Below, piece by piece: positions 50,791 through 63,566 of a stretch of DNA of 64,000 nt. Numbering within the stretch: position 1 is the stretch's first letter; the number at the start of each line of letters is the position of its first letter. The notes below the pieces were generated by a model. The model had not been told where the DNA came from. It did not search any database and worked only from the letters and a program-made list of their open reading frames with translations. The stretch comes from Opitutales bacterium (GTDB lineage Bacteria > Verrucomicrobiota > Verrucomicrobiia > Opitutales > JABSRG01): the NCBI GenBank assembly GCA_028280845.1, contig JANQKZ010000018.1, forward strand, positions 1-64,000, given 5' to 3'. The position numbers were made by a program, and so were the translations under genes.

Positions 50791-51201
50791 TTAATTCTCG
50801 CTGATACTTGCTTTTGAATAAGCATAAGTAGGTTCATACCTAATCAAGTTATGAGTTACGAAATCAATTATTAAATTTCCTTCATAATAAATGTCACTTC
50901 CAGCCTCGTAAGCCCTAATCATACTACTTTTTTCTATTAATATTTTACCAGTATCCCACTCAACAATTTGATAATCGCATTTCTGGAGATCACCATCAAC
51001 GATAGGGCCAAGTTCTAAAATAAGATACTGGGTTGGTGAGAAATCTACTCTAGTCTGACCAGATTTAGGTAAAGCAACCAATCCTTTAGACTGATAAACC
51101 TCAACCTCTGATTCCGGAATAGCAACTTCCTCTAAAGGGCCTTGTGAGCAACTTGGAAATATCACAAGAAGTGAGATAAGAATTTGTGTCAATGTTTTCA
51201 T
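50791..51201 (-). CDS. small lipoprotein coupled to RHS protein, candidate immunity protein
   Basis: A 136-residue protein with a lipoprotein signal (TLTQILISLLVIFPSCSQG; lipobox FPSC). The mature part begins SQGPLEEVAIPESEVEV. I do not recognise its domain. Its start codon overlaps the RHS stop codon by one base (TAATG arrangement, 51199-51203), which couples its translation to the RHS gene. Small genes directly downstream of RHS C-terminal toxins are commonly immunity proteins, and a lipid-anchored one would fit a toxin acting in the periplasm or at a membrane. That role is inference; it could equally be an accessory export protein. Confidence 0.65.
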   Translation of the reverse strand: MKTLTQILISLLVIFPSCSQGPLEEVAIPESEVEVYQSKGLVALPKSGQTRVDFSPTQYLILELGPIVDGDLQKCDYQIVEWDTGKILIEKSSMIRAYEAGSDIYYEGNLIIDFVTHNLIRYEPTYAYSKASISEN

Positions 51202-54200
51202 TAAATGTCATTATCAGGTGTATAAAATGTTCCTTTATCATTTTTAATAATTGTTTCCGGTGGTTCCATATTTAGAAAACTCATCTTGGATATTGTTATC
51301 CACCGAAATTTCTGATAAACTTTATAATCCACTAAGACGGACTCAATATATGGCCCATCAGGACCATAAAAAACTTCCGGAGCGTAATGCTCAACATGTT
51401 CCAAATAGGGTTGCCCATAGATTGCTAGTATATCAATTGCTTCAAGAATTTTCAAGGTGCCCTTTCCAATTTTCATAATCTTTTGAAATTTACCTTTGGA
51501 AAAAATTTCAAAGGCATCAATTGAAGATTCAGCAAACTCAGGAAATTTCTCCGGGATCATATCTCGTCGAATGTATAATGACTCATCCACAACCTCTTCA
51601 GTCCAAGATACACTAGAAGGAAATAAATTGTGACCTTCTGCATTATATAGGTGAACAAAGGCGGCAGAGATAGCCCCGTTTGCGAACTTGCCCCCACCTA
51701 TTGAGGCAACTGTACCTCCTACTGTAGCGGCCACCATGGTCCTTGCGACCATTTTCACGTTATTGCCATCCTGAGGAGTTCCCAACCCCTTAATCTGGAA
51801 CTTGCTGGTCATATGGCTGGCCAATCCTCCAAGGAACCCGGAGGTAAAGTCCCCTCCTCCAAGTTCATTGATTCCTCCCTGAGTGACTCCATGAAGGAAG
51901 GCCTTTGCAAGAAACTCTATATCTCCTCCAATTCCAAGGTCCAAGCTACCGATTCCATCTGCTACACCCATACTGATGGCTGAAAGAGAAGTGCCGACTA
52001 CTCCCCCGATTATTGCATCTTTAAATGATGCCCCCATAAGCATACTCTGCACGGTTGAGGCAATAAAGGTGGTAACAATAAATTCCGCGAAATTAAGTAG
52101 ACCGATCTTGAACAGCACGGCCGGAACTAATGGCAAGAAGAAACCACTCGGATCCGTATAGCTTAGCGGATTGTTTAAAACATAAGAATACCGATTATAG
52201 CTTTGCGGGTTGTCGGGGAATTGAACGAATGGGTCTGCGGAGAGGAACCGGCCGAGGAACGGGTCGTAAATCCGGCCATTCATGTGGACCAGCTTGAGAT
52301 CATTCAGGAGCTCATGACCGGTGTAACCACGATCTCCGGACTTCCAACTGTTGCTCCAGGTGGAATAGAGGGAATCCCAATCGTTTGGATTCACTTTCTC
52401 TCCCCACGCGTTAAAGAAAAATTCTTCTTCAACGTTATAGCTGTCATCCAGCACAAAAAGCACCGAACCCAAATGGTCTTTAAGAAAATAGTAAGTTTCG
52501 GCTCCACCAACTCCAGCATCCATCACGGTATAGGAACCCACTACTCCTGTGGGTGTGGGAATCAAACACCGCTCCCGCAGGGTCGTCCCATCATCTTCTT
52601 TCTCATAAAGACCAACGATGATCTTTGTTCGAGTAGTAGACCCTTCCTTGAACTTCTCTACGGTGCGATGGTGGTTCGCATCATAGAGAAATTCCACGTA
52701 ATCGCCCGAGCCGGATTGGGTAATTCTGGAAGGCTTGTTAAAGGCTGTCCAGGTAAGGGTATCCCCCGCTCTGGAGGTCATATTCCCATTGGCATCATAG
52801 ACGTAAGATTTGCCCCGGAAGGAGGTAACTTGATTAATCTTACTGGAATGGTAAGTGTAGGAATAACCACCCCGGGTGGCGATATTTCCATTGGCCTGGT
52901 AAGTGGCATAAGTCGTCATCCCCCCGGTAATTGAAGATTGGATAAGTCGGTTCAGATCATCGTAGTAGAGAGACTCCGCCTGACTGGTTCCGGTACTTTT
53001 CGAGCGGCTGGTGAGATTGCCTAAATGATCAAACCCGAAAACCATGTTTTGGATATAGCTTCCCGATCCGGAGACTTGCGCTTTTATCGTTTCAGTAAAG
53101 CCTGTCCCTTCCTCATATGCCTGACTCACCACTAATGGAGAAGCAGCTGAGCCAATTTGGTATTCCTCTATTTGTCCTCTGCCATTGTACTTGGGAGCGG
53201 ACCAATGGGTGGTCCCAAATTTGTCTTCCACTTCAATCAAGGCACCGGTACCCCCTGAATCGTAAACGTTTTCGATCCAATAATTATTGGGATAGGCGAT
53301 GGTGGCTACCCGTCCATAGAGATCATAGGATGTGTCCGTATGGTAGGTCTCGGCCTGGGCCGGGCCGGCACCGTCAGCATCGATGGTGGTTGCCTCCGTG
53401 ATCAATCTCCCAAGGGAATCATAAGTAAAGGCTTTAGAATAATTGTCCGGGCCCGATTCTGTGGCAATCTGTCCAACGCCTTTGCCCCCTGCGGTATCGT
53501 AGCCCCAGGAATAACTCAAGGAACCTATGGTTCTCGAGGTCATCCGGCCAAGGGCATCATAAACAAGGGTGGTTACATTACTCTTGGCATCGGTCTGGGT
53601 TTTTAATCTCCCCAAAGCATCGTAAGTGTATTGCCAATTCCCCATGTTGGGGTCGGACATACTGGTCTTATTGCCACGAACATCATAATTCATGGTGACC
53701 ACCAGGTTGCCCGGGCTGGTGGTTGATTTCAGGTTGCCGTAGCCATCATAGTCCGAGGCTACCGTGTTGCCATCATCGTCTGTCGTCAGGACCGTGTCAC
53801 CTGCAGCATTTACCTGTTTCTTGGAAATCTGGCCCTTGGGATTGGTGGTCGTGACTTCAAATTTGTTATAGCTGATCAAGGTTACGAGGTCTCCTCGCTC
53901 ACTCCCCTTTCTGATCTCCTTGGGCCTGCTTAACTCGTCAAATACACTATTCGTGGTCCACCGAATGGTTTCCCCTGAAACATAGGGATCAGAGGTGCGG
54001 CTAGTCCGACCAAAAGCGTCATATTCAATTTCAGTGTATACCGTGCGCCCACCGGGAGTGCCGGCATAATACACCTGAGTATCCGACCCGATTTCACGGC
54101 CTAACCTGTCATAATAGGTATAAACCGGAGCCGCATAGGATTGGCCATAGAGGAGGGACTCGGATACTAGCGCATACTTGGCCCCGGAAAATTTCACCCA

Positions 54201-57200
54201 ATCCCCATTCCCCTCTCCATTCGGGATTCGGTAGGTACGGCTGTAGGTGCCATCGGGTCGTTGTTCGCGATAGGGTCGCCCAAAGGCATCGTAGGAAAAA
54301 TCGACCACGAGGTCGTTTGGATCCGTCATGCTGGTTGCCACTCCAAACCCCGCCCGGCCAAAAGCCTGCTCTACCTCATGGCTCAGGGCATTCGTGGTTT
54401 TGATATTATATCGGTAAGTTGAGTCATACAGGTAGGTAGTGGTTGCGGAAGGGATGGCGGATCCTCCAGATCCTCCGGTCACCGTTTTCGTTGAAATATT
54501 ACCCTTCGTATCATAGGCATAGGTTGAGGTGAGGGCGAGACTAGTTCCCGGCTCAAGGGTCTCTGTCTGGAGCATCCCATGGAAGGATGAAGCGCTCGAG
54601 TAGTAGGTAAACGTGGATTTCCGCTTCTGGCTCTCTTGGCTGGTGCCGTCCCAGAACGTAACTTCTGTTTGGGACAATCTGGAAAGCACCCAGGCATCTT
54701 GGGCGGTATAAGGGGTGTAGAAGGAGTTGACCGTTTTAATTTTCCGATCAGTCGTCGCACTGGTCCCATCGTACTGTTGATACTCAATGGTGATTTCGGT
54801 GTTATTCCCCCAGTGATCCCCAAAAGTATTGTCGGTCTTTACCCGCTGGTACGGATTAGAGTTGGCCAACTCATAGGTATCGGTGGTGGAATTATCGATG
54901 AAAGGAAAAAAGGATACGGAGTTTCCTCGCTCGGTCGTTATCGTGTTCTCCGTCAGGGTATTGGTGGTTCGGGTCACATAGTACCAGTTCGCACCTACTT
55001 TCACCTCGGTCTCGGACTCTTTGACCATACCGGTGTAAGGGAATTCTTGCTCCAGCACTTGTGTTTTGCGGTGATTCTTTTGTTCGTCCAGGGAGGTGAA
55101 GATGCGGAATCCCTGGAAGCCCCTTCCCCACAAATCCACCTGACCACCAGTGTAGGTGTAAGAGGTGCGATAATTTGTATTGGGGAGGCCCAACCCATCG
55201 TCCTTTCCAACATATTCAGCGGCATACATGGCAGCCTGAAGTTGCATGATGGGGTACTCCGTGGCCACCTCCGCATCTTTCACATAAATGTTGCCGGTAA
55301 GGGGGGCATAAGAAATTTCAGTTTGGGCCCCAAGTCCGTTGGTGACATGAGTGAGAAGGTCATGGACGTTCCCCCCAGAATACCAGGGCTTTATCAAAAC
55401 AGCATTGCTAGCGCCCTCTGAACAGACCAGGAAATCGGCCTTACCATCGCCGTCGAGTTCAGTGGGGAGAAAGAAACCTGTAGTAGGCCATACACCCATG
55501 TCTAATTCGGTATATACCGCTAAATCGTCGAAATCCTTGCCGGTGGAACGATAGATCCTGGCTTGAACATCCCCGCTTCCCTTAAAGATGTGGATGATAT
55601 CTCCACGACCGTCTCCATTGATTTCGGTGGGATACACATAATGTTCGGTCGCCCAGTTGACAGACGCAGTAAAGCTGTGGGTCCCGGTGTATTCGAAACC
55701 ACTCCCCGTGCCTAAATAGTATTTGTCAAAGATGGTAGAGCCCGTCTTATACGAATACACGAGATCGGTATTGCCATCGCCATTCATATCGACAGGAAAG
55801 ATGGTGCTGTCATTCATCCAGGTCCCTAAATCATAAGTCAGGGTAGCGGTTTCGAATGCCGGTCCATAAGTGGTGGGTTGAAATCCATTAGATATGAGGA
55901 CCTTCACATACCGCTTATTCGTTGAGTCATCCTTCGAGGAAAACAGATAATCCGACATACCATCCGCATTCATATCCACGAAATAGCCGGAGGAGATGGT
56001 GTAATCCGCACAGTTTTCCAGGGCTACCGATGCTCGAGAAAGAAGCGATATTGCATTGGTAGAATTATTAGTTATCTGGTAAAAACGGTAGGATATGGAA
56101 TCGGTACCACTTCCATGGGAATCGTTGCGGTAGAAGGCACTGAACTCTGAGCGTCCATCTCCATTCAAGTCAGAGATTTCTAAAGTATAATCGGGAAATT
56201 GGGGCCCCGGGTCACCAAGACCTAGAGGGGCAGAAAAAATGTCCCCATTCAACGTTTTCTCGATGAAACCATTATTCCCGTCCGATAAATAGACTTTAAA
56301 GATTTCCTGCCATAAAAATGTAGGAGGAATAGTATCCAGGTATTCTGCATCCCAAGTCACGCATACAAAATCAGTCAATCCATCACCATTGAAATCTCCT
56401 TCCCGAATTAGATTAAAGTCCCATACCCCGGTGATGGTTTTACTCGCAATTTCCTGCCAGGTTCCTCCTCCCTGAACCCCAGGGTTCGCACTATGCTTAA
56501 AGACTTTGACCTGGTAAGAGCCGCCATCCCTATAGATTTGGAGTAGTTCCATCCGGCCATCCCCTTCAAAGTCTATTGGGCGCAGCTTACAGGGCTCCCC
56601 GGTGGAGCCATCATAGTTGGATATCGTTTCATTTGCAAAAACATGCAGGGTCAGGTCGTTCGACCCCCCATTTTGGTAAGCAAAAGTTGTCGCAGGAAGG
56701 TTCTTACCGGATGAGGTAAGTTGAACCGAAGTCAGCAGGCTCTTTTTCGTTTGTGAACTATTCGCGTAGTTCAATGTATATTGCTTTATCTCAACCCCAT
56801 TTTCCCTGATGGATATCGACTTTAAGCGGTTTTGAATCTCAATCTTCCCCCCATCGATATACCGGGTAACGTAATCACTGAGTGTCCGGCTCTCATAGTC
56901 GAAATGGACATTACAATGGGTGTAAGAGGATCCATTAAAGCTATAGTGTATATCTGTAAGCTTTTGCTCTCCAGTAGAGGAGTTTGTGGTATAGACAAAA
57001 GTCATTTGGTTCCCCAGGGAATCTTCCACTTTATCCAATGACCAGGACAGTACCTCCGATTTGCCGGCTGGTTTTAGTTGGGCACTAGGTGTCTGCCCAT
57101 AGGTCATTTTCAGCCCATCTTTGGTTTCGACTTCAAAATATTGGGGACCATTTCCCTGAGTCCCTACGGCTGTGATTCGTGAGAATGAATCAATTTCTGT

Positions 57201-58085
57201 TCGGTATTCTGAATTGGCCGCCCCATAGATACCATGGTAGAGCATCAACCGTTGGCCATCCAAGGCGAAGTGGTCACTTGAATCAAAGTGAACTCCCGAT
57301 CGGGCAAATTCAGAGCCTGAGGTAGCCGAGTAACCATTGTCCAATGCCGTGGTTGTGGGGATTCTAGTAATCGCAGAAAGGCCCGAAAGGTTCCAACCTT
57401 GACCAAGAAACCCGGATCCTCCCTGGCTGCTGTATGAAAGAGCGAGCTTGGGTTGCACGCCTCCAGTCCCCGGTATAACTTCAATTGGAATGGAGTAGGA
57501 AGAGGCCCCACGGTTATCAACAGAAAGCTCGCCAGGTAAGGATCCCACCGGGGAATAGTTCACACCTGGATCAGAAAAGGCCTGGAGCTCGCTGGAATTG
57601 AGAATTCCGTCAAAATCCCAGTCTTCGCCCGCATCCGCGGCATTATTGGGGTTCATCCCAAAATGAATTTCTTTGGCATCAAATATTCCATCTTGATCGG
57701 TGTCAGTTTGCTCCTCCTGTCGGGAAAAAACCAGGGGAGAACTTCCTGAGGTAATCATCGCCTTAAAAAGACTCCCAGACTTTGCGTGAAACCCGGGAAG
57801 CAAAGAGATGGAATCTGTTGCATAAAAAATAGAGTCTCCTCCACTCTCGATTACTACATTTCCAGAGGTCTCCACGTTCTCTTCAAATCCTGCCTCCGGA
57901 TAATCATAGACCTGCCCGGATTGAACTGTGACGGGCCCCACGGCCGCCCCCCATAGATGCCCTACTGCTAAAGCGGGAATAATAAAGGGTAATACCAGGT
58001 GTTTTAGCCCCAGTTCACCTTCTCTGCGAATCGCTCTGCGTTTGATTCCGTTCCATGACGCTTCAAGTTTGCTTTTACCCTTCAT
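51201..58085 (-). CDS. giant RHS-repeat/FG-GAP protein with variable C-terminal tip
   Basis: A 2294-residue secreted protein. A hydrophobic signal segment lies at about 29-47 (HLVLPFIIPALAVGHLWGA). Then comes a coathanger-like repeat (SISLLPGFHAKSGSLFKAMI, about 90-110), calcium-type DxDxDG repeats (DTDQDGIFDAKE) and an SpvB-like domain (VDNRGASSYSIPIEVIPGTG). About six FG-GAP motifs follow (DFNGDGLTDFV, DLNGDGRSEF and others, about 560-900), then many YD/RHS repeats and the RHS core end GRFLSADPF...NRYSYVLNNPLSYTDPSG at about 1980. The last 312 residues hold a Gly-rich hydrophobic part and an AT-richer tip of about 140 residues without a recognisable toxin motif. The gene has a GGGAG Shine-Dalgarno sequence. 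Confidence 0.92.
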   Translation of the reverse strand: MKGKSKLEASWNGIKRRAIRREGELGLKHLVLPFIIPALAVGHLWGAAVGPVTVQSGQVYDYPEAGFEENVETSGNVVIESGGDSIFYATDSISLLPGFHAKSGSLFKAMITSGSSPLVFSRQEEQTDTDQDGIFDAKEIHFGMNPNNAADAGEDWDFDGILNSSELQAFSDPGVNYSPVGSLPGELSVDNRGASSYSIPIEVIPGTGGVQPKLALSYSSQGGSGFLGQGWNLSGLSAITRIPTTTALDNGYSATSGSEFARSGVHFDSSDHFALDGQRLMLYHGIYGAANSEYRTEIDSFSRITAVGTQGNGPQYFEVETKDGLKMTYGQTPSAQLKPAGKSEVLSWSLDKVEDSLGNQMTFVYTTNSSTGEQKLTDIHYSFNGSSYTHCNVHFDYESRTLSDYVTRYIDGGKIEIQNRLKSISIRENGVEIKQYTLNYANSSQTKKSLLTSVQLTSSGKNLPATTFAYQNGGSNDLTLHVFANETISNYDGSTGEPCKLRPIDFEGDGRMELLQIYRDGGSYQVKVFKHSANPGVQGGGTWQEIASKTITGVWDFNLIREGDFNGDGLTDFVCVTWDAEYLDTIPPTFLWQEIFKVYLSDGNNGFIEKTLNGDIFSAPLGLGDPGPQFPDYTLEISDLNGDGRSEFSAFYRNDSHGSGTDSISYRFYQITNNSTNAISLLSRASVALENCADYTISSGYFVDMNADGMSDYLFSSKDDSTNKRYVKVLISNGFQPTTYGPAFETATLTYDLGTWMNDSTIFPVDMNGDGNTDLVYSYKTGSTIFDKYYLGTGSGFEYTGTHSFTASVNWATEHYVYPTEINGDGRGDIIHIFKGSGDVQARIYRSTGKDFDDLAVYTELDMGVWPTTGFFLPTELDGDGKADFLVCSEGASNAVLIKPWYSGGNVHDLLTHVTNGLGAQTEISYAPLTGNIYVKDAEVATEYPIMQLQAAMYAAEYVGKDDGLGLPNTNYRTSYTYTGGQVDLWGRGFQGFRIFTSLDEQKNHRKTQVLEQEFPYTGMVKESETEVKVGANWYYVTRTTNTLTENTITTERGNSVSFFPFIDNSTTDTYELANSNPYQRVKTDNTFGDHWGNNTEITIEYQQYDGTSATTDRKIKTVNSFYTPYTAQDAWVLSRLSQTEVTFWDGTSQESQKRKSTFTYYSSASSFHGMLQTETLEPGTSLALTSTYAYDTKGNISTKTVTGGSGGSAIPSATTTYLYDSTYRYNIKTTNALSHEVEQAFGRAGFGVATSMTDPNDLVVDFSYDAFGRPYREQRPDGTYSRTYRIPNGEGNGDWVKFSGAKYALVSESLLYGQSYAAPVYTYYDRLGREIGSDTQVYYAGTPGGRTVYTEIEYDAFGRTSRTSDPYVSGETIRWTTNSVFDELSRPKEIRKGSERGDLVTLISYNKFEVTTTNPKGQISKKQVNAAGDTVLTTDDDGNTVASDYDGYGNLKSTTSPGNLVVTMNYDVRGNKTSMSDPNMGNWQYTYDALGRLKTQTDAKSNVTTLVYDALGRMTSRTIGSLSYSWGYDTAGGKGVGQIATESGPDNYSKAFTYDSLGRLITEATTIDADGAGPAQAETYHTDTSYDLYGRVATIAYPNNYWIENVYDSGGTGALIEVEDKFGTTHWSAPKYNGRGQIEEYQIGSAASPLVVSQAYEEGTGFTETIKAQVSGSGSYIQNMVFGFDHLGNLTSRSKSTGTSQAESLYYDDLNRLIQSSITGGMTTYATYQANGNIATRGGYSYTYHSSKINQVTSFRGKSYVYDANGNMTSRAGDTLTWTAFNKPSRITQSGSGDYVEFLYDANHHRTVEKFKEGSTTRTKIIVGLYEKEDDGTTLRERCLIPTPTGVVGSYTVMDAGVGGAETYYFLKDHLGSVLFVLDDSYNVEEEFFFNAWGEKVNPNDWDSLYSTWSNSWKSGDRGYTGHELLNDLKLVHMNGRIYDPFLGRFLSADPFVQFPDNPQSYNRYSYVLNNPLSYTDPSGFFLPLVPAVLFKIGLLNFAEFIVTTFIASTVQSMLMGASFKDAIIGGVVGTSLSAISMGVADGIGSLDLGIGGDIEFLAKAFLHGVTQGGINELGGGDFTSGFLGGLASHMTSKFQIKGLGTPQDGNNVKMVARTMVAATVGGTVASIGGGKFANGAISAAFVHLYNAEGHNLFPSSVSWTEEVVDESLYIRRDMIPEKFPEFAESSIDAFEIFSKGKFQKIMKIGKGTLKILEAIDILAIYGQPYLEHVEHYAPEVFYGPDGPYIESVLVDYKVYQKFRWITISKMSFLNMEPPETIIKNDKGTFYTPDNDI

Positions 58086-58121: not shown

Positions 58122-58562
58122 CTAGTCCTTCTTCTCACGTTTCATTTTGTTCGTGGAAGCACGTGATTTTACTGCCTCTTTCAGCTCTTGAGTTCTATCT
58201 GTGTCTAACTCCTTAGCTGCCATCCGTTGACCTTGCCGTTCTTGAAGGTCCGACTTATTCCCTTTTTGTTGCCCCTCCTTCAAGCTGAAGCTGTAGTTTT
58301 TTTTGAGATACTGAAAAGAAACGCTCTCATCAGTAATTTGGACTACCTTTACGTCAGTGGCGGCTAGGTCGCCTTCCAATTTGACTAACTTTTTCCGGTT
58401 CCGGTCCCAAAGCACAAGGTAGGTTTCTCCCGATTCTCGATCGTGGAGATGTTTCACCTCCAGCCCATCATTTAGGGTTCTTCCCTGAAAGTCTTGGGAA
58501 TAGCCTTCAGTTGTCAGGCAAGCCGCCAAGACAAACATGGTGTATAGAATGTGTTGCCTCAT
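58122..58562 (-). CDS. secreted hypothetical protein, 146 aa
   Basis: A 146-residue protein with a signal peptide (about 1-23, ending EGYSQ). The mid part KLVKLEGDLAATDVKVVQIT, followed by SVSFQYLKKNYSFSL, is beta-rich and faintly resembles the small GspC/PilP-type domains of secretion systems. The C-terminal 50 residues are strongly charged and probably helical (ELDTDRTQELKEAVKSRAST). I do not assign a family. It has a GGAG Shine-Dalgarno sequence overlapping the end of the last fibre gene (one-base gap) and lies 36 bases before the RHS gene, so it belongs to the same transcript. It may help export or anchor the fibres or the RHS protein. Confidence 0.7.
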   Translation of the reverse strand: MRQHILYTMFVLAACLTTEGYSQDFQGRTLNDGLEVKHLHDRESGETYLVLWDRNRKKLVKLEGDLAATDVKVVQITDESVSFQYLKKNYSFSLKEGQQKGNKSDLQERQGQRMAAKELDTDRTQELKEAVKSRASTNKMKREKKD

Positions 58563-58563
58563 T

Positions 58564-59631
58564 TTATTTCTCCTTTAATTGGCTGAGTATCGTTCCGAGG
58601 TACTGCTCCAACTCTTGATTTTTGGTTTTGAGTTTTGAAATTTCCTCCTGGTGTTTTTTGATAACCGAATCCTGTTCAATCAGGTAGAGGGTCAACTCCT
58701 CCACCTTCTGCAGCAGCATCGTCTGAGTTTCGCCGACCGATGCCCCTCGGGTCTGCACCTCCTCGGCTGTTGGCACACCGGGCAGGCGTTTCTCCTCAGA
58801 AATGAAGTCCGCCACCTCCTCCAGGGGCATGAGCTCATAGTCCTCCTCGAAGACAAAGTCTGCCCAGTTGGATTCGACGATGATCTCTTTGGCCCGGACC
58901 GTCCCGGCAACATCCAATCGATAAGCCGGGTTGCTAGTCCCAATTCCAACAGCATTTTCTGACCCATCGACCATAAACACCGCTTGGTTCTTTCCATTTC
59001 CCACATAGAAATCTCGGAACCGGGTGTCTCCCGCCAAGTAGCCTTGCCAGTTTATCCAAAAATTTGCGTTGTCCGTGTCATTTCCATAAGCCACCCCTAA
59101 GGTGTGACCAGTAATGTAGGTGTTATATCTCCCCATATTTGCATCTCTACCTCCAAAAAATGCGGCGATATCACTTGAACTTCCGGTCCCCCAAGGCTTC
59201 TCCACTTCTAGTTTGACTTGAGGGTTGGTTGTTCCAACTCCCACATTCCCAGTATGCTCGACGGTAAAAAAAACTTTGCTACTCCCGTAAAGATCAACGT
59301 CCTGAGCAATTTCAAACGAGTTATCAATATTGTTGAGCCCTATAGCCCAAGTACCTGCGGTTGAATAATCAGTAAAAATAATCTCGGGGTTGTTTGCCGC
59401 TGCGCCCAGTTTAATCTCCGCCAAAGCACTACCAGTTCCATTATCACGAATAAATTTCGCTAACGGAGAGCCACTCGTACCACCTTCGACAAGGAGGGTG
59501 GTATCTGCGCTATTCTGGTCCACCGTGAGTTTCCCCGTTACTGTTTCGTCGACCCCTTGGAGCTGAAAGGATAGGGCCAAAAACAGACATAGATTCGCAA
59601 GTGCCTTGGGAAAAGTGCTTTTCATTTTCAA
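58564..59631 (-). CDS. fibre-like secreted protein 5 (conserved C-terminal module)
   Basis: A 355-residue protein with a signal peptide (about 1-26). The N-terminal part (TVTGKLTVDQNSADTTLLVE) differs from its four paralogues. GVGTTNPQVKLEVE and GIGTSNPAYRLDVAG are fibre-type repeats. From about residue 245 comes the conserved module: VRAKEIIVESNWADFVFEED, ELMPLEEVADFISEEKRLPG, GASVGETQTMLLQKVEEL, then a long coiled coil (EQDSVIKKHQEEISKLKTKN) to the end. This end module is known from fibre-like proteins of Bacteroidota and PVC bacteria and probably trimerises. It is the last of five tandem paralogues. Confidence 0.88.
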   Translation of the reverse strand: MKMKSTFPKALANLCLFLALSFQLQGVDETVTGKLTVDQNSADTTLLVEGGTSGSPLAKFIRDNGTGSALAEIKLGAAANNPEIIFTDYSTAGTWAIGLNNIDNSFEIAQDVDLYGSSKVFFTVEHTGNVGVGTTNPQVKLEVEKPWGTGSSSDIAAFFGGRDANMGRYNTYITGHTLGVAYGNDTDNANFWINWQGYLAGDTRFRDFYVGNGKNQAVFMVDGSENAVGIGTSNPAYRLDVAGTVRAKEIIVESNWADFVFEEDYELMPLEEVADFISEEKRLPGVPTAEEVQTRGASVGETQTMLLQKVEELTLYLIEQDSVIKKHQEEISKLKTKNQELEQYLGTILSQLKEK

Positions 59632-59636
59632 ATGAC

Positions 59637-60467
59637 TTAGGGGGTTGAATTGATGAGGGTTTCCAAGGTCTCAATGCGTTTCATCAATTTTGCATTTTCC
59701 GCCTCTTGTTGAATAAGATAAAGCGTCAGCTCCTCGACCTTCTGCAGTAGCATCGCCTGGGTTTCGCCGACCGATGCCCCTTGGGTCTGCACATCCTCGG
59801 CTGTTGGCACACCGGGCAGGCGTTTCTCCTCAGAAATGAAGTCCGCTACCTCCTCCAAGGGCATGAGCTCATAGTTCTCTTCAAAGACAAAATCGGCCCA
59901 ATTGGATTCAACAACAACTTCCTCTGCCCGGATCTTCCCCTTAACCTCAAATTTGTTTGCTGGGGAATCCACTCCGACTCCCACATTTCCTGAATCTTGT
60001 ATAGTGAACAATTTACTCCATGATACGGTGTCCCCTGCGGTTCCCCCGGCGCCTCGAAAAAAAGCAAACACATCTCCTGTGACATGCATCGCTAGTTTCA
60101 ACGCAGGTTCGTTGGAAACCAGGTATGTATTGGGAGAGGGCGTGGCATTCCAGTAGTGTTGAATGCGGCCGGTACTGTCCTGTAGAGAAATGATGTAATC
60201 ACTGGTATTGGCACTCATTCTGAAATACTCATCTCCATCATAGGTCCCTCTCGGATTATAGGGGCTCTTCCGGATTACGACGGGAATATTTCCATTGATA
60301 TCCAATGCGCTCGATGGGTCCGCGATACCAATCCCCACTTCTTCACCAATAGTATAGAGATCGGAGCCTGTATCTATCCAATCGGCTGAAAGGGGGGATG
60401 AGGTGCTGGTCAACAGCCAAAGCAGACCCGTAAGCAATGTGGCCTTAGTTTTTATTTTCCAAGTCAT
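59637..60467 (-). CDS. fibre-like secreted protein 4 (conserved C-terminal module)
   Basis: A 276-residue secreted protein with a signal peptide (about 1-28). The conserved head is DWIDTGSDLYTIGEEVGIGI. A variable centre (about 60-165) follows, and then the VGVDSPANKFEVKG repeat and the conserved end module (IRAEEVVVESNWADFVFEEN, LPGVPTAEDVQTQGASVGET) with a coiled coil, QQEAENAKLMKRIETLETLI. The start overlaps the end of the preceding paralogue by 23 bases, with a GGAG Shine-Dalgarno sequence inside that gene. Its DNA is nearly identical to paralogue 5 over part of the end module, which suggests recent exchange. Confidence 0.88.
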   Translation of the reverse strand: MTWKIKTKATLLTGLLWLLTSTSSPLSADWIDTGSDLYTIGEEVGIGIADPSSALDINGNIPVVIRKSPYNPRGTYDGDEYFRMSANTSDYIISLQDSTGRIQHYWNATPSPNTYLVSNEPALKLAMHVTGDVFAFFRGAGGTAGDTVSWSKLFTIQDSGNVGVGVDSPANKFEVKGKIRAEEVVVESNWADFVFEENYELMPLEEVADFISEEKRLPGVPTAEDVQTQGASVGETQAMLLQKVEELTLYLIQQEAENAKLMKRIETLETLINSTP

Positions 60468-61320
60468 GAATCCGGTTCTCCAATTGAATGATGTATAAAG
60501 TCATTTCCTCGATTTTCTGTAGCAGCATGGCTTGGGTTTCGCTTACCGATGCCCCTTCAACTCGGATCTCCTCAGCAGACTTCACCCCAGGTAACCGTTT
60601 TTCTTCAGAAATGAAGTCCGCCACCTCCTCCAGGGGCATGAGCGCATAGTCCTCCTCGAAGACAAAATCCGCCCAGTTGGATTCGACGATGATCTCCTTT
60701 GCCCGGGCCGTGCCGTTGACGTCTAGAGTATAGGACGGATTGGTCGTGTGGATTCCGATAAAGCCATCCTGATTGATAACGAATTTATTTCCTCCTCCGG
60801 ATTGATGGAACCCCACTCTACCGGTTGAGTCGGCAAATAGCATAATATCATTACCACCCGTATACGCTAGGTTCCTCAGCCTCATGTAAATGTTGGAAGC
60901 CGTCCGTCTGGATTCAAAATTAGCAATCAAATTGGCGGCCCCATCAACGGGATTGATAACATGCAAAAAAGATGACGGATTCGTCGTTCCATGACCAATC
61001 CACCCGGTATCCTGCATAATAGTGAGATAATTTGCCTCAAACGCTCCCGAGTCGGACATGCGCTGAAAGGTCATTCGGTCATTATCAAAAGCAAGCCGCA
61101 TGGCTTGCTCACCAACGGTGTTGGCACTATTGGTAAACAGCACACCAAAACTGCTGGTGGTACCGTTCAGGTGCAGGGGAGCCACTGGATTGGACGTCCC
61201 AATCCCCACATCATCAGTGGTCGTATACAGGTCATTCCCCGATTGAACCCAGTCGCCCTGAACCAGATTCCCTACAATAAGCAGGCTAAAACACACGCTG
61301 AAAACTTGGCGTAAATTCAT
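60445..61320 (-). CDS. fibre-like secreted protein 3 (conserved C-terminal module)
   Basis: A 291-residue secreted protein with a signal peptide (about 1-22). The conserved head reads DWVQSGNDLYTTTDDVGIGT, then NPVAPLHLNG. The centre (about 50-190) is unlike its paralogues, with asparagine- and glycine-rich strands. The end module starts ARAKEIIVESNWADFVFEED, with LPGVKSAEEIRVEGASVSET, and ends in a short coiled coil, LENRIHDLENKN. It has a GGAGG Shine-Dalgarno sequence and a 4-base ATGA overlap with the preceding paralogue. Confidence 0.88.
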   Translation of the reverse strand: MNLRQVFSVCFSLLIVGNLVQGDWVQSGNDLYTTTDDVGIGTSNPVAPLHLNGTTSSFGVLFTNSANTVGEQAMRLAFDNDRMTFQRMSDSGAFEANYLTIMQDTGWIGHGTTNPSSFLHVINPVDGAANLIANFESRRTASNIYMRLRNLAYTGGNDIMLFADSTGRVGFHQSGGGNKFVINQDGFIGIHTTNPSYTLDVNGTARAKEIIVESNWADFVFEEDYALMPLEEVADFISEEKRLPGVKSAEEIRVEGASVSETQAMLLQKIEEMTLYIIQLENRIHDLENKN

Positions 61321-62291
61321 CTCGTTTCCTCCAATTCTCTTATCCGTTGCTTCAATGTCTGGTTCTCTTCGTGAACTTGAATGACGTAGAGTGTCAGCTC
61401 CTCCACTTTCTGCAGTAGCATGGCCTGGGTTTCCCCGACAGAAGCCCCCTCAGCATGAATTTCTTTAGCAGATTTAACCCCCGGTAAGCGTTTCTCCGCT
61501 TGAATCACGGCCGCCACTTCCTCCAGCGGCATCAACTCATAGTCCTCCTCAAAGACAAAGTCCGCCCAGTTGGATTCGACGATGATTTCTTTGGCCCGGG
61601 CCGTGCCGTTGACGTCAAGCTCATAGTCCGGGGTTGTGGTATTCACCCCAATAAATCCAGTGTTTCCAATAAATAGAACATCGGATCCGTTAACAACGGA
61701 ACCAGCCACGTCACTTTCACCCATACGAAAGCGGAGAGCGCCTGCATATGAATCCCACATGATTTGTGCGTTGAAGCCATCTGTCTGCCTCAGCCAGTTA
61801 CCCCCCTGAAAAAAAGCATTAAAGGAAAAACCTTCCCAACCTCCATCATGGAAAAAGAATCTATCTCCAATTCGAAATCGTTCCTTGGGTTCAGTAGAAT
61901 AAATTGCAAGTTTACCCGTAGAAGAAAGAAATAACCCCGGGGTATTCCCACCCCCTCCTCGGGCTTCAATTATCATCCGAGCATCACTACTATCCTTATC
62001 GACGATCTTTAGCTGAGGACTCCCACCTGTGATGGTACTCTCTATCCAGAGCATAGTGTCGTTGAAATGGTAATTACTGTACGGGCTTTGGAAACGAGCT
62101 ATATTAGAATAAGTTCCCCCGCTGTCGTGGTAAACATGCAGAGCTTGAGTGGGATCCGTAACCCCAATTCCCACTTGTTCCCCAATAGTATAGAGGTCGG
62201 TGCCGCTATCTGTCCAACCAGCGATAACCACTCGAACCAGTGATATGAATGCCAGGGTATAAATAGGAAAACTCTTTTGCCAAATCTTCAT
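61317..62291 (-). CDS. fibre-like secreted protein 2 (conserved C-terminal module)
   Basis: A 324-residue secreted protein with a signal-type hydrophobic start (about 8-24). The conserved head is GWTDSGTDLYTIGEQVGIGV, then DPTQALHVYHD. The variable centre extends to about 210 and is followed by GVNTTTPDYELDVNG and the end module (ARAKEIIVESNWADFVFEED, KRLPGVKSAKEIHAEGASVG), with a coiled coil, HEENQTLKQRIRELEE. Its start overlaps the previous gene's stop by ATGA. Confidence 0.88.
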   Translation of the reverse strand: MKIWQKSFPIYTLAFISLVRVVIAGWTDSGTDLYTIGEQVGIGVTDPTQALHVYHDSGGTYSNIARFQSPYSNYHFNDTMLWIESTITGGSPQLKIVDKDSSDARMIIEARGGGGNTPGLFLSSTGKLAIYSTEPKERFRIGDRFFFHDGGWEGFSFNAFFQGGNWLRQTDGFNAQIMWDSYAGALRFRMGESDVAGSVVNGSDVLFIGNTGFIGVNTTTPDYELDVNGTARAKEIIVESNWADFVFEEDYELMPLEEVAAVIQAEKRLPGVKSAKEIHAEGASVGETQAMLLQKVEELTLYVIQVHEENQTLKQRIRELEETR

Positions 62292-63304
62292 TTTGTTTCC
62301 AGTTCTTGAATTCGATTTTCCAGCTGAATAACATACAGAGTCAGCTCCTCCACTTTTTGCAGAAGTAAAATTTGTAGTTCCCCTATGGATACACCCTGAT
62401 CTATCATTTCCCGGGCGGGGGGAATGCCTGGGAGATGGCCGTTCTCTGCAACGTAGGCCTCGATTTTATTCAACGGTTTCAATGGGTAATCGGGCTCAAA
62501 AACAAAATCTGCCCCGGTAAAGGTCTCTACAATGACTTCCTCAGCCCGAATGGTTCCGTCTACATCCAGTTCATTTTGGGGTTCCTTCGTCCCGATCCCC
62601 ACCATCCCATTGCCGTTACCATCAATGGTCAGGACATGTTTACTCCCTATGGTTTCGGCAGAGTCTACGCCGTAATCCCAAACGAAGAAGTCTATGGCAT
62701 TTCGGGCATCCTGACCGCCGTGGTGACGAGTCCGGATGGAATGGGAATAATTGGGAGAGCCCGAATACCCCATTCGGATTTGAGAACTACTCGAGCCCAA
62801 ATTTGTATTTCCGGATCTTAAAAGCAGTGAATTCGTACTTGAAGAACTGCCATAAACATCGAGATATGCTAGGGGAGAAGAAACGCCGATTCCCACATTG
62901 CCTCCCTGTTGGATTCGCATCCGTTCGGCAAGAGTGGCTACGGTTCCTGCGGTTCCCGAGGGGCTGGTGAAAAACTGGAAGTCTCCTCCGGTACCATGGC
63001 GAATGACCCACCCGGAGTTCGTTGAGCGATACTTCCACCCTTCACCGGATTTCCAATACAGATTTGAGCCAATGTAAGACCCTGTTCCATCAATTTCCAA
63101 GTGGGCTCCACCGATACCTCCATCGACCTCCAGGTCCCAATAGGGCGAGCTGGTTCCGATTCCAATCTTATCTCCCGTGTAGGATACTGCTCCAGTATCC
63201 GTCCATTGAGCGCACAGAGGGATCAAGGGCACAAGGGTAAACACGAAATGCCACTTCAGACATTTGCCCATTAACCGTGAAAATCGATTCCAACCCATTT
63301 TCAT
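62288..63304 (-). CDS. fibre-like secreted protein 1, first gene of the array
   Basis: A 338-residue secreted protein with a hydrophobic segment (WHFVFTLVPLIPLCA, about 18-32). The conserved head is QWTDTGAVSYTGDKIGIGTS, and two more GIGxxxPxxxLDVxG units follow. The end module is the most divergent copy (IRAEEVIVETFTGADFVFEP, LPGIPPAREMIDQGVSIGEL) and closes with the coiled coil LENRIQELETK. A strong AAGGAG Shine-Dalgarno sequence stands just upstream (from 63311 on the plus strand as CTCCTT). It leads the gene train that ends with the RHS protein and lipoprotein. Confidence 0.88.
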   Translation of the reverse strand: MKMGWNRFSRLMGKCLKWHFVFTLVPLIPLCAQWTDTGAVSYTGDKIGIGTSSPYWDLEVDGGIGGAHLEIDGTGSYIGSNLYWKSGEGWKYRSTNSGWVIRHGTGGDFQFFTSPSGTAGTVATLAERMRIQQGGNVGIGVSSPLAYLDVYGSSSSTNSLLLRSGNTNLGSSSSQIRMGYSGSPNYSHSIRTRHHGGQDARNAIDFFVWDYGVDSAETIGSKHVLTIDGNGNGMVGIGTKEPQNELDVDGTIRAEEVIVETFTGADFVFEPDYPLKPLNKIEAYVAENGHLPGIPPAREMIDQGVSIGELQILLLQKVEELTLYVIQLENRIQELETK

Positions 63305-63566
63305 AAATCTCCTTTTCTTGAAACCAGTAATGCAGTATCGGCGAAATGGGTAAAGAAAAACTTATCCACACGCATTAATGAAATTAGATGAACTAATCTT
63401 AATTGTATTACTGATGAACCACTTAAGGGATTGTGACGGGGGTAGAAAATCATCCCGACTTATACGCTCTATTAATGAGAACGCGTAATCTCCGCTTTGC
63501 CCTTGGCAGACGGATATTGCCGAACTTCGCTCGCCGTGAGAGCTCAAGGAGCTCGTGACCTGACCA
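63305..63566. other. promoter-bearing spacer upstream of the fibre operon
   Basis: No gene is visible here. The part next to the fibre gene is AT-rich and must hold the operon's promoter, but no confident -35/-10 pair can be placed. The part next to the gluconokinase gene is GC-richer and contains the repeated word GAGCTC (63540-63545 and 63549-63554). Confidence 0.45.

What the first reader, a model, noticed from the sequence alone, without database searches (positions are those of the whole stretch)
58564..63304. Five-gene tandem array of mosaic fibre proteins with fixed ends and variable centres
All five genes share a secreted architecture. Four share a head of the type W-x-(D/Q)-(S/T)-G-x-D-L-Y-T. 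All share an end module (ESNWADFVFEED-type, LPG, GASVGET, coiled coil), with near-identical DNA in several copies, while the central 100-170 residues are unrelated. Fixed ends around variable cores is the pattern expected from diversification by recombination between paralogues, as in phage tail fibres and polymorphic adhesins.
Basis: partly seen in the sequence, partly recalled or inferred. Interest (0 to 1): 0.7.

Follow-up and report, generated by a model that had tools for sequence, protein, structure and literature searches.

The report
Shuffling phage-fibre-like adhesin gene array
A Verrucomicrobia genome carries a row of five genes for phage-tail-fibre-like surface proteins whose ends stay constant while their middles are swapped by recombination, and the row sits directly upstream of a giant RHS toxin-like gene, an arrangement that recurs in distant bacteria and resembles the prey-recognition fibres of predatory Bdellovibrio.

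Summary
The observation largely holds. Five co-oriented fibre genes (58564-63304, minus strand) form one operon with a small secreted protein and a 2294-aa SpvB/TcdB-mid/RHS protein. 'Near-identical DNA' is overstated: end modules are 69-85% identical; only a 48-nt core is homogenised. The shaft is the MAT (mosaic adhesive trimer) beta-helix type of Bdellovibrio: PDB sequence hits E=1.5e-5, Foldseek E=1e-6, and the published capping-loop motif repeated 2-3 times per fibre. The constant end module has no Pfam, NCBIfam or PDB match; it recurs in at least 351 stretches of public genomes, mostly Bacteroidota. The genome has a second, homologous six-gene array, also before an RHS gene. Recombination is supported here (PHI test; homogenisation across two loci between saturated flanks) and is explicit in Elizabethkingia, where sister-species arrays carry reassorted heads, cassettes, ends and tails. 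End modules are nearest within a genome (74/98), centres are not (26/96). Arrays of two or more fibres precede RHS genes more often than single fibres (12/22 vs 4/37). Unlike Bdellovibrio MATs, the C-terminal end is constant and the head/centre varies. New variant of a known kind; ligand and link to the RHS protein are inferred.

The parts
62288..63304 (-). A1, first fibre gene, 338 aa; three capping-loop hinges (aa 47, 137, 235); divergent end module
   Evidence: PDB hit 8ond Bd2133 E=1.5e-5
61317..62291 (-). A2, fibre, 324 aa; WTDSGTDLYT head; hinges aa 40, 128, 214
60445..61320 (-). A3, fibre, 291 aa; WVQSGNDLYT head; hinges aa 38, 108, 188; modelled as beta-rich shaft
59637..60467 (-). A4, fibre, 276 aa; WIDTGSDLYT head; hinges aa 44, 162
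58564..59631 (-). A5, fibre, 355 aa (TTG start, ATG two codons in); no DLYT head; hinges aa 130, 228; longest coiled coil
58567..58950 (-). A5 last hinge, end module and coiled coil (same parts in A4 59640-59984, A3 60448-60759, A2 61320-61652, A1 62291-62602)
   Evidence: AF2 pLDDT 90: hinge strands, helices 60-70, 79-85, 89-144 of the modelled piece; positions
58816..58863 (-). DNA-homogenised core of the end module (ADFVFEEDYELMPLEE) in A5
   Evidence: normalised codon identity 0.55-0.66 against about 0 in hinge and coil
63305..63425 (-). 5' leader shared with array B on contig C44 (74% over 159 nt including the first codons of A1/B1)
58122..58562 (-). small secreted-looking protein, 146 aa, no family; lies between fibres and RHS gene
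51201..58085 (-). secreted-looking 2294-aa protein: 3-coathanger stack (GCX_COOH) at aa 77-112, SpvB, FG-GAP, TcdB_toxin_midN, RHS/YD repeats, RHS core, unassigned ~310-aa C-terminus

Best explanation
The five genes encode secreted, trimeric, phage-tail-fibre-like adhesins of the MAT type. Each has a signal peptide, a short head, one or two exchangeable beta-helix cassettes of about 70-120 aa bounded by capping-loop hinges (the presumed ligand-binding faces), and a constant C-terminal end module that continues into a coiled coil. The end module probably folds/trimerises the fibre and attaches it to a common partner, most plausibly at the cell surface or on the co-transcribed coathanger/RHS protein. 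The repertoire diversifies by recombination between paralogues: DNA homology in the end module and hinges lets cassettes, heads and tails be swapped inside and between arrays, which keeps the ends alike within a genome while the centres stay diverse. Shown: operon, shared parts, MAT-type shaft by sequence and fold search, second array, recombination signal, mosaic exchange in Elizabethkingia, statistical linkage to RHS. Inferred: trimerisation, surface display, ligand binding, attachment by the C-terminus, functional link to the RHS protein.
For: Operon with overlaps. Shaft: A1 and A5 to Bd2133 (8ond) E=1.5e-5 and 2.1e-5, A3 to Bd3182 (8ojn) 8.4e-4; A3 model (pLDDT 81) has Bdellovibrio MAT chains as its 12 best PDB matches, best E=1.2e-6; hinge fits the MAT capping-loop consensus; phage tail-fibre PHROGs. 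End module AF2 pLDDT 90 with long coil. Second array of six fibres before an RHS gene with shared leader. Recombination; Elizabethkingia mosaics with flanks at 83-87%; internal cassette duplication and shared 549-nt 3' block with unrelated 5' parts in G001. End modules nearest within genome 74/98 (shuffle mean 5), centres 26/96. Partner: coathanger/T9SS/RHS gene within 5 kb downstream on the same strand in 36/78 loci, upstream in 8/78, coathanger 21 vs 0; RHS after arrays of two or more 12/22 vs single 4/37, Fisher p=5e-4.
Against: No ligand, localisation or trimer was measured. The monomer model of a presumed trimer overlays poorly (TM about 0.2-0.4). In the window most of the end module is conserved only at protein level. 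PHI on A2-A5 alone is not significant (p=0.21). No strain-level comparison for this species; G001/L066 are short-contig assemblies prone to repeat misassembly. Elizabethkingia array 2 is not fully static (6 switches against 24 in array 1).
Confidence: 0.72

Rival explanations
1. Ordinary paralogue family: old tandem duplications followed by fast divergence of the centres and purifying selection on the end module, with little recombination.
For: dS between window end modules is high (0.6 to saturation) with dN/dS around 0.1, so conservation is largely at protein level; centres are distantly related rather than unrelated.
Against: PHI p=0.0005 across arrays; codon identity above random only inside the end module, peaking in 16 codons also between unlinked arrays; cassette and tail exchange in Elizabethkingia; centres' best matches mostly in other genomes, ends' in the same genome.
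Confidence: 0.17
2. The array is a remnant of a prophage or tailocin tail-fibre module.
For: PHROG tail-fibre matches; some phage and viral-contig relatives of the end module.
Against: Only 2 of 50,697 phage records match and 29 viral stretches against 351 bacterial ones; the sampled window neighbours are mostly metabolic genes; hydrophobic N-termini of secreted type; repeated co-occurrence with secreted coathanger/T9SS/RHS proteins.
Confidence: 0.05
3. Programmed switching: a dedicated recombinase, invertase or diversity-generating retroelement shuffles silent cassettes into an expressed gene.
For: Orphan end module C1 without signal peptide beside a transposase (C44:47138-48460) could be a silent cassette.
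Against: All array members have their own start, signal-like sequence and closely coupled genes; no recombinase among the ten Pfam-scanned window neighbours and no long near-perfect inverted repeats in the array; exchanges follow homology. A reverse transcriptase was not sought specifically.
Confidence: 0.06

Closest known systems
MAT (mosaic adhesive trimer) superfamily of Bdellovibrio bacteriovorus (PMC10769870; PDB 8ond, 8onc, 8ojn, 8oml, 8onf)
   Same: Secreted fibre genes in large paralogous sets; beta-helix shaft and capping-loop motif V-G-G/N-pi-X-X-P-X-X-X-L; mosaic architecture; best PDB matches by sequence and fold
   Different: No ~130-aa conserved N-terminal domain; short (276-355 aa against typically about 1000); constant end is C-terminal, variable part is head/centre; tandem operon with an RHS gene; different phylum
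Phage tail fibres/tailspikes ending in a peptidase S74 intramolecular chaperone
   Same: Beta-helix shaft followed by a C-terminal module in the position of the S74 chaperone; PHROG tail-fibre hits
   Different: No S74 Pfam match in 107 members; SDxxxK present in 2 of 107; signal-like N-termini; bacterial operon
RHS/TcdB-type polymorphic toxin loci (PMC3482391)
   Same: Downstream protein has SpvB, TcdB_midN, RHS repeats and RHS core; tail-fibre repeats are listed there as repeats of polymorphic toxins
   Different: Fibres are separate, multi-copy upstream genes with their own constant end module; toxin activity and immunity gene not shown here

Membership tests
MAT superfamily | Signal peptide and secreted fibre | tested here: inconclusive
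   Hydrophobic N-termini in all five; AF2 helix 3-16 in A3; no signal-peptide predictor was available
MAT superfamily | Beta-helix shaft homologous to Bd3182/Bd2133 | tested here: met
   phmmer E=1.5e-5, 2.1e-5, 8.4e-4; Foldseek E=1.2e-6 to 2.7e-4
MAT superfamily | Capping-loop motif V-G-G/N-pi-X-X-P-X-X-X-L | tested here: met
   2-3 per window fibre; 242 against 2.8 expected in relatives
MAT superfamily | Conserved ~130-aa beta-rich N-terminal domain after the signal peptide | tested here: not met
   First hinge starts at aa 38-47 in A1-A4, leaving about 15-25 aa after the presumed signal peptide
MAT superfamily | Variable C-terminal tip on a constant N-terminus | tested here: not met
   C-terminus constant, centre and head variable
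MAT superfamily | Trimer | not testable with these tools
   Only monomer prediction available
Peptidase S74 proteins | S74 domain with SDxxxK dyad | tested here: not met
   No peptidase S74 hit among 107 members at E<=0.01; motif in 2/107
RHS/TcdB-type polymorphic toxin locus | SpvB, TcdB mid, RHS repeats and RHS core in one protein | tested here: met
   (window 51201-58085)
RHS/TcdB-type polymorphic toxin locus | Recognisable C-terminal toxin domain with adjacent immunity gene | tested here: inconclusive
   No known toxin domain above cut-off in the last ~310 aa; immunity gene not sought further
Phage/tailocin tail module | Neighbouring phage structural genes | tested here: not met
   The ten neighbouring proteins scanned are mostly metabolic, none is a phage structural protein

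The most novel reading that the evidence does not exclude
The shuffling fibre array is the recognition arm of the downstream secreted RHS protein: a widespread two-part system in which interchangeable fibres, all carrying one docking end module, give a coathanger/RHS surface complex a recombining set of target specificities for contact with other cells.
Probability: 0.25. Interest if true: 0.82.

Novelty: new variant of a known kind. Interest (0 to 1): 0.6.

Why it matters
It extends the Bdellovibrio MAT-type fibre principle to many non-predatory phyla, with reversed polarity and an end module that no family library or solved structure describes. It offers a natural system for watching cassette shuffling of adhesins, with sister-species pairs at hand, and ties expanded fibre sets to RHS proteins, whose target recognition is poorly understood.

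Tried and rejected
No Pfam/NCBIfam domain in the fibres. Phage collection nearly empty. S74 membership rejected. Foldseek of the end module alone matched only through the hinge. Promoter/terminator scan no better than shuffles. No inverted repeats suggesting a shufflon. The 48-nt core is not a universal DNA element: in Pelagicoccus the raw codon identity of that block (0.51) is about what two-fold codons give by chance (expectations computed only for the window genome). G001 against L066 (same species, 99.5%) suggested rearrangement, but both are fragmented assemblies in which repeats may be misjoined, so it was not used as evidence. Literature searches found no description of this end module or of the fibre-RHS arrangement, within a partial open-access library.

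Full report
WHAT IS THERE. The window is contig C42 of a 4.8-Mb, 62-contig genome. Its one family-level relative, G001, is the same species as Puniceicoccaceae MAG ALOHA_ZT_54 (99.5% over 1994 nt), so the host is a Puniceicoccales-type verrucomicrobium (inference). Five minus-strand ORFs at 58564-63304 (A1-A5 in transcription order) overlap or abut (-4, -4, -23, +5 nt), followed 1 nt later by a 146-aa secreted-looking protein and 36 nt after that by a 2294-aa protein with a 3-coathanger stack, SpvB, FG-GAP, TcdB_midN, RHS repeats and RHS core. None of the five fibres has a Pfam or NCBIfam match above cut-off; all have phage tail-fibre PHROG matches, from weak to E=1e-11.

ANATOMY. Each fibre has a hydrophobic N-terminus, a short head (WxDSGxDLYT type in A2-A4, WTDTGAVSYT in A1, none in A5), two or three hinges of the form VGIGTxxPxxxLxV, cassettes of about 70-120 aa between hinges, the end module (W-[AS]-D-[FY]-V-F ... 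LPG ... EELTLY) and a coiled coil. In 107 relatives D, V and F of the signature are invariant and W is in 103. AF2 models the end module at pLDDT 90 as hinge strands, two short helices and a 56-residue helix. A3 as a whole models as consecutive short strands followed by the helical end (pLDDT 81).

WHAT THE SHAFT IS. PDB sequence searches with A1, A5 and A3 return Bdellovibrio MAT fibres (E 1.5e-5, 2.1e-5, 8.4e-4); Foldseek with the A3 model ranks MAT chains 1-12 (best E 1.2e-6). Caulton et al. (PMC10769870) describe a capping-loop consensus V-G-G/N-pi-X-X-P-X-X-X-L at both edges of the Bd3182 binding cleft; our hinge fits it, and A3 aa 93-206 aligns to Bd3182 from one capping loop to the next. 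The variable centres therefore correspond to the beta-helix segment which in Bd3182 carries the presumed ligand cleft. Membership of the MAT superfamily is only partial: the conserved N-terminal domain is absent and the polarity is reversed.

SECOND ARRAY AND SPREAD. The genome holds 14 end modules: five here, six on C44 (57736-63422) followed by a coathanger protein, a 219-aa protein and a 2192-codon RHS frame, two more near a transposase, one alone on C22. Arrays A and B share a 159-nt leader/first-codon stretch at 74%. G001 has fibre-fibre-coathanger-534 aa-RHS. In the window's class only 5 of 286 sampled genomes have the module, but 351 stretches in GTDB species genomes do, mostly Bacteroidota among the 78 loci kept; a Pelagicoccus MAG has 20 and Agaribacillus 18 copies.

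RECOMBINATION. In the window the end modules differ at dS 0.60 to saturation with dN 0.04-0.14 among A2-A5, so most conservation is purifying selection. Yet 50-nt-scale identity is patchy: A4/A5 are 66% identical over the hinge block and 98/92% further on, A2/A3 are 94% over the hinge-RAKE block and 74% later. Against codon-usage expectation, synonymous codon identity is nil in the hinge and coil and 0.53-0.68 in 16 codons of the core, also between arrays on different contigs. PHI over A2-A5+B3-B6 gives p=0.0005; A2-A5 alone p=0.21; B3-B6 p=0.009. In G001 one fibre has a tandemly duplicated 280-nt cassette (88%) and two fibres share 549 nt of 3' sequence at 94% with unrelated 5' parts. The clearest case is Elizabethkingia: E. 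occulta fibre 1 has the head of E. miricola fibre 1 with a cassette and the end of fibre 2; fibre 2 has the head of fibre 3 and the last cassette of fibre 2; fibre 4 has a private head on cassettes of fibre 1. Painting three species gives 24 donor switches in array 1 and 6 in a second, nearly colinear array; flanks are 83-87% identical. Over all genomes, 74 of 98 end modules have their nearest relative in the same genome (shuffle mean 5), whereas only 26 of 96 centres do.

PARTNER. Fibre genes tend to lie directly upstream of large secreted proteins: in 36 of 78 loci a coathanger, T9SS or RHS protein lies within 5 kb downstream on the same strand, against 8 upstream on the same strand and 0-2 on the other strand; coathanger 21 against 0 (NCBIfam checks). 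The detectors for these counts were home-made HMMs, so absolute numbers are rough; the asymmetry is the point. RHS follows arrays of two or more fibres in 12 of 22 loci and single fibres in 4 of 37 (p=5e-4). Loci are not phylogenetically independent, so the p-value is indicative.

MECHANISM. Most likely: Sec-exported trimeric fibres with exchangeable ligand-binding cassettes on a common C-terminal trimerisation/docking end; paralogue recombination through the ends and hinges keeps the ends alike and the centres varied. Display on the cell surface and docking to the RHS/coathanger partner are inferences from position and co-occurrence.

NOVELTY. Mosaic adhesive fibres are known (MAT) and RHS loci are known; the constant C-terminal module, the reversed polarity, the tandem shuffling operon and the linkage to RHS genes were not found in the libraries or papers searched. 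Supplementary tables of the MAT paper, which list examples from other bacteria, could not be read, so part of this spread may already be noted there.

Noticed in passing
L020 11139-11504 (G000:C44:47138-47503): Orphan end module, 121 aa, without signal peptide, beside a REP-type transposase-like gene (L020 11526-12455): pseudogene or silent cassette.
   Followed up: partly
L187, L186, L189: Elizabethkingia has a second three-gene fibre array that is nearly colinear between species, followed by a 581-aa secreted-looking protein: a natural control for the shuffling array.
   Followed up: partly
L025 2376-3269: G001 fibre whose end module is broken by a frameshift; a REP-type transposase-like gene lies directly downstream, as at the end of the RHS locus on L024.
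   Followed up: no
window 51201-52160 (C-terminal ~310 aa of the RHS protein): C-terminus after the RHS core has no recognised toxin domain; no immunity gene was identified next to it.
   Followed up: no
Persicobacter plasmid CP012864: 18 places on one 110-kb plasmid match fibre A2: a very large fibre repertoire on a plasmid.
   Followed up: no
Thermus phage phiFa MH673672 45147-46175: A phage 'distal tail fiber protein' matches A5 over 72% of its length at 33% identity.
   Followed up: no
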